From Roseivivax lentus (GTDB lineage Bacteria > Pseudomonadota > Alphaproteobacteria > Rhodobacterales > Rhodobacteraceae), in the NCBI RefSeq assembly GCF_900156805.1, contig NZ_FTOQ01000006.1, positions 1-64,000 of the forward strand: a DNA stretch of 64,000 nt, read 5' to 3'. The translations under genes were made by a program, and so were the position numbers. Under the pieces are notes generated by a model. It saw only the letters and a program-made list of their open reading frames with translations, searched no databases and was not told the origin of the DNA. Of the stretch, positions 195 through 5,994 are shown piece by piece (the first letter of the stretch is position 1; each line of letters opens with the position of its first letter).

Positions 195-1799
195 ATGCGC
201 ACGAGAGCGACGTCCATATCGCTGAACGGAAATTTTCGGCTCGTAATGGCCGGGCTCGAGGTCGAGGTCCGGGCCAGCAGAGCGCGGGCGATCGTGGCGA
301 TCCTCGCTACCGCTCACGATCACAAGAAATCCCGCGATGCGCTGAAGGCAATGATTTGGCCGCGCAGCGATGAAAAGCAGGCCTCCGGCAGCATGCGCAC
401 GGCGCTTTCGAGCCTGCGCCATGACCTAGGCGAGAATGCCGACCTCGTCGGTGCGAACCGCACCCATATCTGGCTGAACGGCCCGGTCGAATTGCTCCGT
501 CCCGACGATGGCGGGGCGTTTTTCGAAGATGCGCCGACGGATATCGGTGCGGATTTCGAGGATTGGCTGCAGACCGAGAGAAACCGCTCGGACCGGCAAC
601 TGCCCATCATCGCCCCGCTGGAATGTGGCCCGACGCGCCGCATCTGCATTGGCATCCTGCCGATCCATGAGCGGCTCGATGAACCGATGGCTGCGCTGCT
701 GGCCACGCAGGTGCTCGATTTCGTGATCGAAAGCTTGAGAGCCCACGAAATATTTCAGCTTTTCGATTTCAGGGACCTCGAGACGGATCATTTCTCGGGC
801 GGAGTTCCGGGCATCTCCGACCCGGAGATGTATCTGCGGCTGAGCCTCACAAAAGTGCGTTCGATGGCGCAGTTGTCGGTCTCGGTCCTGAGCGGACGCC
901 AGATCCTGTGGGCCCATGCGACCTCGGCCGATCAGTCCGGTCCGTTCCTGTTTTCGCATGACGATGTGGCGGCCTTCGCAAACCAGACGGTGGATGCGAT
1001 CCTGAAGGCCGCGTTTCGCAAATATGAAGGCGCCGCCTTTCGCGGCAAGGGGCCGCAATCCATGATCGGCGTCGTGCATCAGCTCTATGGCATGTCGCGC
1101 GAGGGCCAGTATTCGGTGCGCCGTTACCTTGAGGGGCATCCCGAATTGGAAGGCTCAGCGCTGGCCAACGCCTGCTACGCGTTGTCGGTTGCCAACACGC
1201 TGGGGGAGGGAGAGCCGACCTTGGCCGATCTCGAAGAGGCGCGGCGCCATGCAACGCGTGCCCTCGAACTCGATATGCAAAATCCCTTGGTTCTGGCGTT
1301 TTGTGGCCATGTTTTCGGCTTTGCCCTACGGGAATTTGCGGTCGGGGCCGAAGCCACGAAACTGGCGCGGCGGCAGGCGCCCGCAATGCCGCAGGCCTGG
1401 GATTTTTCGGCGATGAACGCAATCTATCGCGGTGCGCTTCCGGATGCGATGCGCTTCAGCCGAAAGGCGGCCCAGCTCGGCCAATACAGTCCATATCGTG
1501 AATTGTTCCGCTCGTCCCTTGCCATAACGGCGACCCTTACGGGCGAGCATGAGACCGCCGTGCAGGTGTCGCGCTCCGTATTGATGCGGTTGCCGGAATT
1601 CCTGGCCGTAATGCGCCATGCCGCGGCGAGTTATTCGGCGCTCGGCCAGCTTTCAGAGGCCGAGAGCATGGTCGAGCAGGTCCGGGCCCGCGATCACAGG
1701 TTCAGCCCTGAAGCCGTGCAGGACCCGAAATACCCATTGCCGAGCGCAGATAGCCGGGACGTGATCGGACGCACGTTCCGGATGCTCGGCCATAGTTGA
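195..1799 (+). CDS. SARP-like transcriptional regulator with TPR-rich C-terminus
   Basis: This 534-residue protein probably regulates its own cluster. Residues about 8-100 match the winged-helix DNA-binding fold of SARP/OmpR-type activators: two short strands (LNGNFRLVMAG), then RASRARAIVAILATA, the helix region around SRDALKAMIWPRSDEKQA, a SMRTALSSLRHDLG recognition helix, and a final strand. Residues about 155-300 (GILPIHERLDEP...) look like the TolB/adenylate-cyclase-associated sensor-like region often found in such proteins. The rest is helical with alanine-rich TPR-like repeats. A GAGGAGG sequence sits just upstream of the ATG at 195. No receiver domain or kinase is visible nearby, so the signal is unknown. 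It is followed after 38 bases by the PAP2-subtilase gene on the same strand. Regulator class is fairly sure; ligand and targets are inference. Confidence 0.75.
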   Translation: MRTRATSISLNGNFRLVMAGLEVEVRASRARAIVAILATAHDHKKSRDALKAMIWPRSDEKQASGSMRTALSSLRHDLGENADLVGANRTHIWLNGPVELLRPDDGGAFFEDAPTDIGADFEDWLQTERNRSDRQLPIIAPLECGPTRRICIGILPIHERLDEPMAALLATQVLDFVIESLRAHEIFQLFDFRDLETDHFSGGVPGISDPEMYLRLSLTKVRSMAQLSVSVLSGRQILWAHATSADQSGPFLFSHDDVAAFANQTVDAILKAAFRKYEGAAFRGKGPQSMIGVVHQLYGMSREGQYSVRRYLEGHPELEGSALANACYALSVANTLGEGEPTLADLEEARRHATRALELDMQNPLVLAFCGHVFGFALREFAVGAEATKLARRQAPAMPQAWDFSAMNAIYRGALPDAMRFSRKAAQLGQYSPYRELFRSSLAITATLTGEHETAVQVSRSVLMRLPEFLAVMRHAAASYSALGQLSEAESMVEQVRARDHRFSPEAVQDPKYPLPSADSRDVIGRTFRMLGHS

Positions 1800-1837
1800 A
1801 AGTGTTTTGAAAACGTCCGCAACGGGAGGATTTGATT

Positions 1838-1885
1838 ATGTAATTTTCACGTCGCAGCGTCCTGCTGGGGGGCGCGTCGGCTCTG
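1838..1885 (+). other. interrupted start and Tat signal peptide of the PAP2-subtilase gene
   Basis: A good Shine-Dalgarno sequence (GGGAGGA, 1824-1830) lies seven bases before an ATG at 1838. The next codon is TAA (1841-1843). After it, in the same frame as the long downstream coding region, the sequence reads FSRRSVLLGGASALVG and runs on to a DGAFAQ cleavage-like site. That is a twin-arginine signal peptide. A single T-to-A change at 1841 would restore M-K-F-S-R-R. As it stands, translation begun at the natural ATG terminates after one residue. Whether this is a recent null mutation, a sequencing error or a start-stop control element cannot be decided here. Confidence 0.8.
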
Positions 1886-4468
1886 GTGGGCCTCAGGGTG
1901 GACGGCGCGTTTGCGCAAGGCTCGGACTGTTTCATCCCTACCAGGCAAGGATTTATCGGCAGCTTGCGGTCCGCGGTTTTGAGCGCGCAGACCCGCGGGG
2001 TTCCCAAGATCGTGAATTGCTACACGCCGCGTGGCGTCGCCCCGCTCGACCTTGCCGGGCTCTATGCGAAGCCGACGGGACGGTTCGTAGTGGAGGACGC
2101 ACAGGGCAATCAAGAGACTGTGGTAGTGATCGGTCATGAAGCTCCGGCGGATGCCGTCATCGACGAGTCCCTCGCCATCTGTCACAGCCCGGCAGACGGA
2201 TTTCCAGAAAACATCTTTGGGATCGATACGATCACCGGTCTCGGGCGCGGTCGTGGTCGGGGGCGCGGACGCCGGGGGCGCGGACGCCGAGGCCGGGGAC
2301 GAGGGCGCGGGCCCGAAGGCATGCTGGCCGGGACCGGAAGCGGCCAACAGCGTCTCGACCTCCTCTTCGAAGAGGAGACGGCGCACTACCGCCAGCGCGT
2401 TACCGACAGCCTGCCGACGATTGCCGAATTGCTGCGGGAGCCGGGGGCCGACGATCCTTACGTGCTGCGGCCTCCGGAGTATTCCGGCACCGTGACGCAA
2501 GATGAAGTCGAGGCTCTCCTCGAGATGCAGATTTCCGACGAGCGCGACGTGCGCCTTCCAGAGATCAACGCGCAGGTCGACGATATCGCCACTCCGTTTC
2601 TCGAGCTGGTGTCGGATTACGCGGGCCCTCCAGCGGGCGTCTTGCGGGTCCTGAACCTGATGGACATGGCCGGCTTCGTGGTGGGCTATTACTTCAAACG
2701 TCAGTTCGGACGGTTGCGCCCGAACGTCTTCGATCCCCGGATCGTCCCGTCGATCCCGGTGCCGACGCATTCGTCCTATCCCAGCGCGCACGCGGTTCAG
2801 ACCCATCTCATCGCGCATGGCTTGGCGGAAATCTACGAGGACTCCGCCCTGGTGGCGCGGTTCTTCGATACGGCGGAACGGATCAGCGTCAATCGCGAAT
2901 ATGCCGGGGTGCATTATGCGTCCGATACCGAGGCGGGCATCATCGCGGCCCGGGCCGCCTTTCCGATCCTGCGGCTGGTGATGGACGAAGTCTTCACCGA
3001 CGCCATTGCGGAAATGAACATCAGCCCGCAAGCCAATTGCCACATGCTCGGAAGCCCCGGCGAGATCGAGCAACCGCCGGTGAAATCGGATCCTGCAGCG
3101 GGGAACGGTTGGAACCTCGGTGCGCTCGGAATTCGGAACGCCGGCCCGTCGGAGACCGGCAAGAAGACGGTCGTGGCGCTTTTCGACACTGCGGTGGATG
3201 TCCACCACCCCGCGCTTAAAGACGCGATCCAGAACGAGTTCATCAATCTTGACTATCCGATGCCATTGGATGACCCATGGTGCATGGGCTCGAAAGGGAT
3301 CGGGCACGGAACGGCCATGGCGGGGCTTGTGGCCGGATCGATGGGCGGCAGGAGCCTCGGCGTCGCGCCCGATGCGAAGATCCTGCCTGTCCGCTGCGCG
3401 AACCTCGCGCGTGACGATCATGACGACCGGTTCGAGCTGGGCGTAGCCATCCTCGGCGTCGGTCTGGCGGGAAATCGCGGCATGCTGCCCAATTGCCCAG
3501 CGGAGGCTGACGCGGCCCGTATCGCGGCGGTGGTTCTGTCGCTCGACTTCCAGAAGCCTGATTACGACCGCGCCGGTTATCTCTCCGCCTACGAGATCCG
3601 AAAGGCCGCCGAGGAAGGTAAGCTGGCCGAGAAGATCAAGGAGGCCCGAGATGAGGACCGACCCGCCTGTGATCCTTTCGCCCTGGCGATCCTGATCGTG
3701 CAGACCCAAGTCGCCGTGGTAATCCCCGCGGGCAATGGCGGCGGCGACCGCCTGGCCTATCCGGGAAATCCCGACGACTACGCAGCGATTTTCGAATTAC
3801 TGAAACATCCCGAGGGGCGCGATTTCGTGTACGATTTGCTGCTCGAAATGATCGACAGCTACAACATGTCGTTTTCGAGAGACATGCGGTTTGAAACGCG
3901 GCAAGCGTTTGATGCTTTCCGCGAGGACGCGCTGGAACCGCAGCCGCTCTACACGCGATCCCCCGATGACGACGGCGATCCGTTTGAGCAAACCGGGATC
4001 ATCGTCGTGGGGGCGGCGAATTACGAAGGCGCGCCGGATCTCGACCCCGACAACTTGGATCGCAGCACCCATATTTGTGCGGGCTACAGCCAATATGGCC
4101 CGGGCCTTTGCGTCCTTGCGCCGTCCGACCGGGACACGGATCCGCCCTATCGCTGCGACACCGCGGATGGCGCGGGCAGCGTCCCCGTTCCCACCGCCGA
4201 CATACGCGGGCCGGGCGGTTTCGCGGCCGATCCCCTCGCGGATTACAGCCATGCGGGCCAGAAATACGGCTTCGGCGGCACTTCGGCGGCCGCCGCGCAA
4301 GTCGGCGGTGTGATCTCTCTTCTCGCGGAACGGAAGATAACCCAAGCGCCTAGTGCACCCCTGAACGGTCCCGATTTGCGCAGAACGTTGACCGGCCTGG
4401 TCGTCGAGGCGCGGGATTATATTCCGGCCGCGCACGGGAAGGGCGCCGTCGACCTGACCGGATTTTGA
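1886..4468 (+). CDS. PAP2/vanadium-haloperoxidase-like phosphatase fused to a subtilisin (S8) protease
   Basis: This open frame joins two enzymes. Numbered from the GTG at 1886, residues about 200-365 carry the PAP2/haloperoxidase signature: KRQFGRLRP near 270 (K-x6-RP), PSAH near 298, and NREYAGVHYASD near 337 (R-x5-H-x3-D). Residues about 425-855 are a subtilase: Asp in ALFDTAVD near 433, His in GHGTAMAG near 473, an oxyanion-hole Asn in IPAGNGGG near 617, and Ser in GFGGTSAAAAQVGG near 800. All catalytic residues are therefore present in both domains. The PAP2 domain would act on phosphate esters, or bind vanadate; the subtilase is presumably extracytoplasmic. Between the signal peptide and the PAP2 domain lies an unusual Gly-Arg tract. 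The natural start at 1838 is followed by a stop codon, so the only usable downstream starts (CTG/GTG near 1883-1886) delete most of the Tat signal. It ends just before the S1 protease gene. Confidence 0.8.
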   Translation: MGLRVDGAFAQGSDCFIPTRQGFIGSLRSAVLSAQTRGVPKIVNCYTPRGVAPLDLAGLYAKPTGRFVVEDAQGNQETVVVIGHEAPADAVIDESLAICHSPADGFPENIFGIDTITGLGRGRGRGRGRRGRGRRGRGRGRGPEGMLAGTGSGQQRLDLLFEEETAHYRQRVTDSLPTIAELLREPGADDPYVLRPPEYSGTVTQDEVEALLEMQISDERDVRLPEINAQVDDIATPFLELVSDYAGPPAGVLRVLNLMDMAGFVVGYYFKRQFGRLRPNVFDPRIVPSIPVPTHSSYPSAHAVQTHLIAHGLAEIYEDSALVARFFDTAERISVNREYAGVHYASDTEAGIIAARAAFPILRLVMDEVFTDAIAEMNISPQANCHMLGSPGEIEQPPVKSDPAAGNGWNLGALGIRNAGPSETGKKTVVALFDTAVDVHHPALKDAIQNEFINLDYPMPLDDPWCMGSKGIGHGTAMAGLVAGSMGGRSLGVAPDAKILPVRCANLARDDHDDRFELGVAILGVGLAGNRGMLPNCPAEADAARIAAVVLSLDFQKPDYDRAGYLSAYEIRKAAEEGKLAEKIKEARDEDRPACDPFALAILIVQTQVAVVIPAGNGGGDRLAYPGNPDDYAAIFELLKHPEGRDFVYDLLLEMIDSYNMSFSRDMRFETRQAFDAFREDALEPQPLYTRSPDDDGDPFEQTGIIVVGAANYEGAPDLDPDNLDRSTHICAGYSQYGPGLCVLAPSDRDTDPPYRCDTADGAGSVPVPTADIRGPGGFAADPLADYSHAGQKYGFGGTSAAAAQVGGVISLLAERKITQAPSAPLNGPDLRRTLTGLVVEARDYIPAAHGKGAVDLTGF
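2243..2311 (+). repeat. Gly-Arg-rich low-complexity tract with a 15-bp tandem repeat
   Basis: Within the PAP2-subtilase gene this stretch encodes an almost pure G-R alternation. It contains two perfect, adjacent copies of CGGGGGCGCGGACGC (2258-2272 and 2273-2287). Read one base later (+1 frame) the same DNA gives a Gly/Ala/Asp/Glu-rich linker, which is the more usual composition for bacterial inter-domain linkers. The tract may have grown by slippage, or two compensating indels may bound it. The frame is the same on both sides. Confidence 0.7.
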
Positions 4469-4470
4469 AC

Positions 4471-5994
4471 ATGAAGCGAATCATGAATTATGCCTGCACC
4501 GCGGCCCTCTCTGCCTGTCTTGCTTTTGTCGTTCCGGCAGCACCCGCACAAGCACAGCAAGACTCGAGTGCGCTTTACGTCATGCCATATGCGAATCCGA
4601 CCGAGGTCGTCAGCGCCTTCAACAGAAACCAAGGCGCTTTCTCGAGCCGGGGAGTTTTGGACTGGCCAATCGCACCGACCGTGCCCGAGGCCATCGCCGA
4701 CGAATTGGTCGTGGACTATACCGAGCGCCACGTCGCGCTTCTCGAAAGGATTCCAGAGGCGCTTTGGCCCCGGATCGACGCTGGGCTCGACTGCGCGGGC
4801 GGCCGTGCGCTAATTCAGGTCGACCACGGGGAAACCTTTGCCGCCTATCTCTTGGGGGGCCAGCTGGTCGTCACCGATGCCGGCCGGACCCTGGAGCTGC
4901 GCGAGGACCTTCCGGACCAACTAGCGAGTGCCGGAGAGGTCGTGTTCCAGCCGGGTTCCGGGAGCGCTTTGCGCGATTGCGGAGATATCGTCAGCCTGTT
5001 CAACTTCGGTCGGCCCTTAGAGCCTCCGAAGAACGAAAACCGTCCCACCCTCGCGGGCAGCGGTCTGCGCATTCCCTGTGACGCGCTGAACCCCGACGCC
5101 AATATCGGCTGCGCGTTCCATACCGTGCGGCTGTCGGACATGGTCCGCGGCCTTTTCTGTACCGGCTCCCTAATCTCTCCGCGGCATGTATTGACGGCGG
5201 CGCATTGCCTCTGCGATCGTGTCGTCAACGGTCAATTGCGGGATGACGTGGCCGTTTCTGTGGGCATTTCGAACGATTGGGCCGCGATCTACCCCAAGCA
5301 GGACGGCGTTCACTTTTACAACCAGACCAGCGTCTGCGCCTCCAGCGGCGCGCCCTTCGAGCAAAGGATCGAAAACGGCGATCTTGCGCTTGTGACGCTA
5401 CCAGACGGCAGTCTCGACGCGGCCAAGACGCAGTTGATCGAGAAGGGGCGCGACCCTGAACATGTGGCGCGCAGCCTCGTGTCGATCGCGGCGCGGGACC
5501 TCTCCGATACGGTCTGGGTGACTCCGAACGCGGGCCAGAACGAGTTCACGACGATCGGCTACGGCATCACGCAAGACTTGCAGGCCCGGGCGACGAAACG
5601 CGAAATGCGGATGGCCGCCCGGCAACTGGGCCCATGTCACGGGCCGGTGGAGGCCGACGGGCGCTGCGCCGGGCACCAATCAGCTGTGTTTCTCGAAGAC
5701 GGCAAGGCGATCTGTCCCGGAGACAGCGGCAGCGGGATGTTCAAGTTCGCGGACGATCCGCCGGAGGGCTATGGTGGCCTCGTGCTGATGGGTGTCGTCT
5801 CCGGCATGGGCCTCGTGAACCGGTGCCACCACGCGGAGACCGATGCCGTGCTCGAGACGCAGCCGCCGCGCAATGTCGTCCGCATCGACACTAGGGCCGT
5901 TCAGGATTGGCTCGACGCGGTGATCGGGGAAGACAGGCTCGTGCGCGGCACGCCGCTCGATGCGCCGCTTGTTTTTGCCGAAGCCCCGCAATGA
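4471..5994 (+). CDS. secreted trypsin-like (S1) serine protease with a novel N-terminal region
   Basis: The 507-residue product starts at ATG 4471, two bases after the previous stop, which suggests translational coupling. Residues 1-28 form a Sec signal peptide ending APAQAQ. About 200 residues of unrecognised sequence follow. The chymotrypsin fold comes next: His245 in LTAAHCLC, Asp304 in ENGDLALV, and Ser419 in CPGDSGSGMF. Cysteines around the active site (GCAFHTV, FCTGS, AHCLC, AICPGDSG) suggest disulfides, consistent with export. The N-terminal region could be an inhibitory propeptide or a substrate-binding domain. With the subtilase upstream this makes a two-protease unit, so one may activate the other; that is inference. 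Assignment to family S1 is secure, the substrate is unknown. Confidence 0.85.
   Translation: MKRIMNYACTAALSACLAFVVPAAPAQAQQDSSALYVMPYANPTEVVSAFNRNQGAFSSRGVLDWPIAPTVPEAIADELVVDYTERHVALLERIPEALWPRIDAGLDCAGGRALIQVDHGETFAAYLLGGQLVVTDAGRTLELREDLPDQLASAGEVVFQPGSGSALRDCGDIVSLFNFGRPLEPPKNENRPTLAGSGLRIPCDALNPDANIGCAFHTVRLSDMVRGLFCTGSLISPRHVLTAAHCLCDRVVNGQLRDDVAVSVGISNDWAAIYPKQDGVHFYNQTSVCASSGAPFEQRIENGDLALVTLPDGSLDAAKTQLIEKGRDPEHVARSLVSIAARDLSDTVWVTPNAGQNEFTTIGYGITQDLQARATKREMRMAARQLGPCHGPVEADGRCAGHQSAVFLEDGKAICPGDSGSGMFKFADDPPEGYGGLVLMGVVSGMGLVNRCHHAETDAVLETQPPRNVVRIDTRAVQDWLDAVIGEDRLVRGTPLDAPLVFAEAPQ

What the first reader, a model, noticed from the sequence alone, without database searches (positions are those of the whole stretch)
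1838..1885. Start codon followed at once by a stop: Tat signal peptide of the PAP2-subtilase gene is switched off
The ideally placed ATG (GGGAGGA seven bases upstream) is followed by TAA, and then by an in-frame, textbook twin-arginine signal (FSRRSVLLGG). The following 2.5 kb remain open with all catalytic residues of two enzymes preserved, which is not what an old pseudogene looks like. The mutation is therefore either very recent, a sequencing error, or a start-stop element controlling reinitiation, for example at the CTG/GTG codons around 1862-1886. Loss of the signal would also leave the protein in the cytoplasm.
Basis: partly seen in the sequence, partly recalled or inferred. Interest (0 to 1): 0.75.

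Follow-up and report, generated by a model that had tools for sequence, protein, structure and literature searches.

The report
Recent nonsense mutation at codon two
One bacterial strain carries a stop codon directly after the start codon of a gene for a secreted two-enzyme protein, a stop that none of the relatives found here has, so this is most likely an ordinary, very young gene-disabling mutation and not a control switch.

Summary
ATG (1838-1840) follows the Shine-Dalgarno-like GGGAGGA (1824-1830) at 7 nt, is followed by TAA (1841-1843), and then by 874 open codons encoding a twin-arginine signal, a PAP2 domain and an S8 subtilase. The locus is single-copy in the genome.

The same-genus, colinear relative G005 starts MNFSRRSVLL. 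More distant full-length homologues start MNISRR, MNVSRR, MKLSRR and MSTSWSMSRRR. None has a stop, and codon 2 is AAT, AAT, AAC or AAA where it aligns.

Nothing points to an old or regulatory stop. The window protein is not accelerated relative to G005. No second lesion occurs in 874 codons. The signal stretch upstream of any usual restart codon still shows amino-acid-level constraint. The candidate restart GTG 1886 is GTC in G005. There is no Rfam match and no unusual RNA fold.

Best reading: a strain-specific, recent nonsense change that abolishes or strongly lowers a secreted protein. Most pseudogenes in a Salmonella survey look like this (PMC2916853). A consensus error cannot be excluded without reads. 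Leaky restart giving a cytoplasmic product is possible but unsupported. Interest is low.

The parts
195..1799 (+). upstream gene: regulator-like protein with TPR_19 repeat, 534 aa, 84% identical in G005
   Evidence: a similar gene lies upstream of the PAP2-subtilase gene in G005, G174, G362, G394 and G665
1824..1830 (+). Shine-Dalgarno-like GGGAGGA, 7 nt before the ATG
   Evidence: GGGGGAA at the same place in G005
1838..1840 (+). ATG, start codon of the ancestral gene
   Evidence: the aligned ATG is the start in G005 (L002) and corresponds to the start in G665b, G174 and G394
1841..1843 (+). TAA stop at codon 2, found only in this genome
   Evidence: AAT, AAT, AAC, AAA in relatives
1844..1918 (+). 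coding remnant of a twin-arginine signal peptide (FSRRSVLLGGASALVGLRVDGAFAQ)
1886..1888 (+). GTG, first ATG/GTG/TTG codon in frame after the stop; candidate restart, not conserved (GTC in G005)
2243..2311 (+). low-complexity (GR)n stretch between the N-terminal part and the PAP2 domain
   Evidence: variable dipeptide repeats in relatives
2654..2971 (+). PAP2 domain, Pfam PF01569
   Evidence: motifs
3158..4333 (+). subtilase domain, Pfam PF00082, Asp/His/Asn/Ser in place
4471..5994 (+). downstream gene: trypsin-like protein with an N-terminal signal-like stretch, possibly affected by polarity
   Evidence: polarity is inference

Best explanation
The TAA at 1841 is a recent, lineage-specific nonsense change in codon 2 of a gene that encoded a Tat-exported PAP2-subtilase fusion. 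Ribosomes placed on ATG 1838 by the Shine-Dalgarno sequence would terminate at once (inferred). Little or no full-length protein would be made, and whatever arises from a restart further down (GTG 1886 or later) would lack the Tat signal and stay in the cytoplasm (inferred). The rest of the gene looks intact because too little time has passed for more damage (supported by the calculations). This is a young pseudogene or null allele.
For: The homologues' starts are sense at this place: G005 ATG AAT TTT TCA CGT CGC, G665b ATG AAT ATT TCA CGT CGT, G174 ATG AAC GTT TCA CGT AGG, G394 ATG AAA CTT AGT CGT CGC; G665a starts MSTSWSMSRRR. Window and G005 are nearest to each other in the tree, with sense codons outside, so the stop is derived. 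Window against G005: dN 0.234, dS 0.896, w 0.26, against 0.33 for the next gene. Relative-rate counts window:G005 are balanced with five outgroups (48:47, 57:48, 19:22, 25:26, 30:23). No further stop or frameshift occurs in 874 codons, so release from constraint is at most about 0.01-0.05 substitutions per site old. Codons 1844-1885, which would not be translated if GTG 1886 were the start, have pS 0.42 and pN 0.05 against G005 (binomial P 0.005). Young single-lesion pseudogenes are the common kind (PMC2916853); in-frame stops with dN/dS below 1 in bacteria are widespread and seem short-lived (PMC7918605).
Against: From the codon shared by the two nearest relatives (AAT), TAA needs two base changes, or a T gained and a T lost nearby, not one. 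No reads and no second strain of the species were available. The constraint on the signal stretch is measured on both lineages together, so it is weaker proof for the window lineage alone. One homologue (G362) and the own-genome paralogue lack a signal, so a signal-less product need not be useless.
Confidence: 0.76

Rival explanations
1. The TAA is a base-calling or assembly error and the gene is intact in the organism.
For: Everything else about the gene looks functional. The position is in a draft assembly of 46 contigs.
Against: The genome is rated 99.99% complete with 0.12% contamination. Some 55 window frames compared with G005 show no other broken gene (each matches its own G005 frame), so errors are not frequent here. 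The locus is single-copy, so no repeat collapse. A single error needs the true codon to be one step from TAA (a K, Q, E, Y, S or L codon), which the AAT of the two nearest relatives is not. The site lies 1.8 kb from the contig end and not in a long homopolymer.
Confidence: 0.14
2. The ATG-TAA is a start-stop element: ribosomes terminate and some restart at GTG 1886 or another codon, giving low-level cytoplasmic protein as a regulated or tolerated state.
For: Start-stop sites are reported in bacteria (PMC11955535), and termination at a start-stop can feed an overlapping start codon in E. coli (PMC9841429). GTG 1886 is in frame, 42 nt after the stop codon. Signal-less members of the family exist (G362, and the own-genome paralogue at C22).
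Against: No relative has the ATG-stop. GTG 1886 is GTC in G005. Reinitiation is reported to fall off with distance from the stop and 42 nt is far. No good Shine-Dalgarno sequence precedes GTG 1886. No special RNA structure is indicated: z 0.22 for the window leader, no Rfam match. The signal codons before GTG 1886 bear the mark of protein-level constraint.
Confidence: 0.07
3. The TAA is read through as an amino acid (suppression) or by-passed by frameshifting from the open frame that starts at TTG 1807.
For: The other frame 1807-2139 is open through the region.
Against: Readthrough at codon 2 requires sense decoding of TAA, for which there is no sign; G005 has a sense codon here. The 1807 frame lacks a Shine-Dalgarno sequence, codes no signal peptide, and would need a +1 slip at no conserved site (sequence, inference).
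Confidence: 0.02

Closest known systems
Young strain-specific bacterial pseudogenes with one inactivating mutation (Kuo and Ochman 2010, PMC2916853)
   Same: single lesion, absent from the nearest relative, no acceleration of the sequence, rest of frame intact
   Different: lesion at codon 2, so nothing but the initiator residue would precede the stop
In-frame stop codons in otherwise constrained bacterial genes (Belinky et al. 2021, PMC7918605)
   Same: stop in an open, constrained gene; such stops are reported to persist for a short time
   Different: that study required the stop to be shared by two or more genomes; here it is known from one
Bacterial start-stop sites and termination-reinitiation (PMC9841429, PMC11955535)
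   Same: ATG followed directly by a stop, with a Shine-Dalgarno sequence
   Different: no conservation, no adjacent or overlapping start codon; in the E. coli cases the true start overlaps the stop

Membership tests
young pseudogene (null allele) | inactivating lesion absent from orthologues | tested here: met
   TAA against AAT in colinear G005; sense in G665b, G174, G394
young pseudogene (null allele) | little or no acceleration or further decay | tested here: met
   relative-rate counts balanced, 0 further stops in 874 codons
young pseudogene (null allele) | no functional product made | not testable with these tools
   needs ribosome profiling or proteomics
regulatory start-stop element | ATG-stop conserved among orthologues | tested here: not met
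   no homologue found has it
regulatory start-stop element | conserved nearby restart codon | tested here: not met
   GTG 1886 is GTC, CTG 1865 is CTC and CTG 1883 is CTT in G005
regulatory start-stop element | ribosome density at the ATG-stop with regulated downstream output | not testable with these tools
   experiment needed
Tat-exported PAP2-subtilase fusion | SRR-x-(F/V/L)-L twin-arginine motif at the N terminus | tested here: met
   present in the frame after the stop and in five of six homologues aligned; in the window it is not joined to a start codon
Tat-exported PAP2-subtilase fusion | PAP2 and S8 catalytic residues | tested here: met

The most novel reading that the evidence does not exclude
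In this species the stop is an adaptive, lineage-specific change that converts a Tat-exported PAP2-subtilase into a low-abundance cytoplasmic protein made by restart downstream of a start-stop site, as signal-less relatives (G362, the own-genome paralogue) might suggest.
Probability: 0.04. Interest if true: 0.45.

Novelty: new member of a known kind. Interest (0 to 1): 0.15.

Why it matters
If the mutation is real, this strain should not export the PAP2-subtilase, and annotation that starts the gene at GTG 1886 (the mechanical call, 860 aa) would be wrong and would hide a null allele. It is a clear example of how a recent codon-2 nonsense change can be mistaken for a regulatory element. The wider gene family is more interesting than the stop.

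Tried and rejected
Two scans of genome contigs (single sequence and two-row alignment) found no relative; homologues came only from the genome search. The plasmid collection gave only partial matches over the PAP2 region, about 32-36% identical in the best rows. Rejected: repeat collapse (single copy); leader RNA element; phase variation through the short T run (adding or removing a T in the TTTT after TAA does not remove the stop; sequence inspection); an alternative in-frame upstream start (TTG 1832 and ATT 1835 run into the same TAA); a general start-stop habit of the genus (GGAGG-N-ATGTRA hits are few, and of those examined none but this one precedes a frame longer than 157 codons). A paper search for a described PAP2/subtilase/SARP system found nothing, and one for restart after nonsense mutations found nothing new.

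Full report
What is there. The window holds GGGAGGA (1824-1830), a 7-nt spacer, ATG (1838-1840) and TAA (1841-1843), followed in the same frame by 874 codons without a stop (1844-4465). They encode a twin-arginine-like signal (FSRRSVLLGGASALVGLRVDGAFAQ), a (GR)n stretch, a PAP2 domain and an S8 subtilase domain. The gene sits between a TPR-containing regulator-like gene (195-1799) and a trypsin-like gene (4471-5994). The locus is single-copy in the assembly. The only GGAGG-N4..10-ATGTAA of the whole genome is this one.

Relatives. A same-genus genome, G005, is colinear over the window. Its copy of the gene is 70% identical in protein and starts ATG AAT TTT TCA CGT CGC AGC GTC CTG CTC, that is MNFSRRSVLLCGASALVGL. 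Searches of further genomes found full-length homologues in G665 (two copies), G174 and G394, starting MSTSWSMSRRRFL, MNISRRAFLL, MNVSRRHLL and MKLSRRSFL. A shorter homologue in G362 begins directly at its low-complexity repeat (MTKTKTK...) and has no signal. In the four copies where codon 2 can be aligned it is AAT, AAT, AAC or AAA. In a protein tree window and G005 lie next to each other, then G665, then the rest, so the stop is derived in the window lineage.

Age. Window against G005, dN/dS is 0.26 for this gene, 0.09 for the regulator and 0.33 for the trypsin-like gene; most other window genes lie between 0.03 and 0.3. Relative-rate counts with five outgroups are balanced, so the window copy is not accelerated. 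Under neutral drift the absence of any second stop in 874 codons limits the time without constraint to about 0.04-0.05 substitutions per site (95%), or 0.01-0.02 if frameshifts are counted at 3-10% of substitutions, an assumed range. That is small beside a dS of about 0.9 for the pair. In the 14 codons between the stop and GTG 1886, differences from G005 are mostly synonymous (pS 0.42, pN 0.05; P = 0.005 against neutrality). So this stretch was read as protein for most of the history of the pair. The caveat is that changes on the G005 branch count too. These results fit a recent stop and speak against a long-standing restart downstream.

Mechanism. Shown: the start site, the stop, the intact downstream frame, the sense codon in relatives. 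Inferred: ribosomes begin at ATG 1838 and are released at once; output falls to whatever restart gives. GTG 1886 is the first usual start codon in frame, 42 nt after the stop codon, without a good Shine-Dalgarno sequence, and it is GTC in G005. A product from it would have neither the twin arginines nor most of the hydrophobic stretch. Possible polarity on the downstream trypsin-like gene is inference only. The leader does not fold better than shuffled sequence (z 0.22) and matches no RNA family.

Mutation or error. Error cannot be excluded without reads. Against it: no other interrupted gene was seen among some 55 window frames compared with G005, the locus is not a repeat, and the nearest relatives' AAT differs from TAA at two bases, so one miscall does not explain it unless this lineage already had another codon. 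Two differences in one codon within an otherwise identical block are also slightly unusual for a mutation; two ordinary successive substitutions through a sense intermediate, or a double change in one event, would both account for it.

Comparison with what is known. In Salmonella, 346 of 378 pseudogenes carried a single inactivating mutation, most were confined to one genome and most showed little or no acceleration (PMC2916853). In-frame stops in bacterial genes with dN/dS below 1 are common and seem short-lived (PMC7918605). Start-stop sites are reported in bacteria (PMC11955535), and termination at a start-stop can feed an overlapping start codon (PMC9841429), but those cases depend on a start codon at the stop itself. 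The finding is best filed as a young null allele, with modest remaining doubt about sequence error.

Noticed in passing
window 2243-2311; L042, L043, L044, L058, L059, L003, L004, L045, L008: Homologues carry a low-complexity repeat ahead of the PAP2 domain whose letters differ between relatives: (GR)n in window, G005 and G665; (KT)n in G362 and G394; (TH)n in G174; (SR)n in G011; (NK)n in G059; LHK-type in the own-genome paralogue; (MA)n in G055. Position conserved, composition not.
   Followed up: partly
window 195-5994; L002, L042, L043, L044, L045, L058: A conserved gene cluster in this bacterial family: TPR-containing regulator-like protein, PAP2 plus subtilase (fused, or split in neighbouring frames as in G011 and the own-genome paralogue), in several cases followed by a further gene with an N-terminal signal-like stretch. 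No described system was found by a paper search; PADLOC gives only a weak generic subtilase match.
   Followed up: partly
G000:C22:252000-260000 (L045): A second, diverged cluster of the same kind in this genome, with PAP2 and subtilase as separate overlapping frames and no signal peptide.
   Followed up: partly
window 4471-5994: The trypsin-like gene is among the fastest-evolving long genes of the window (54% protein identity to G005, dN/dS 0.33), whereas the regulator two genes upstream is 84% identical.
   Followed up: no
window 1845-1852; L002, L059, L042: The bases TTTCACGT at the start of the Tat signal are the same in the window, G005, G665b and G174 although codon choice elsewhere has diverged.
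   Followed up: no
window 2774-2800: PAP2 motif reads PSAH in window, G005 and G665 but PSGH in G174, G394 and G362.
   Followed up: no
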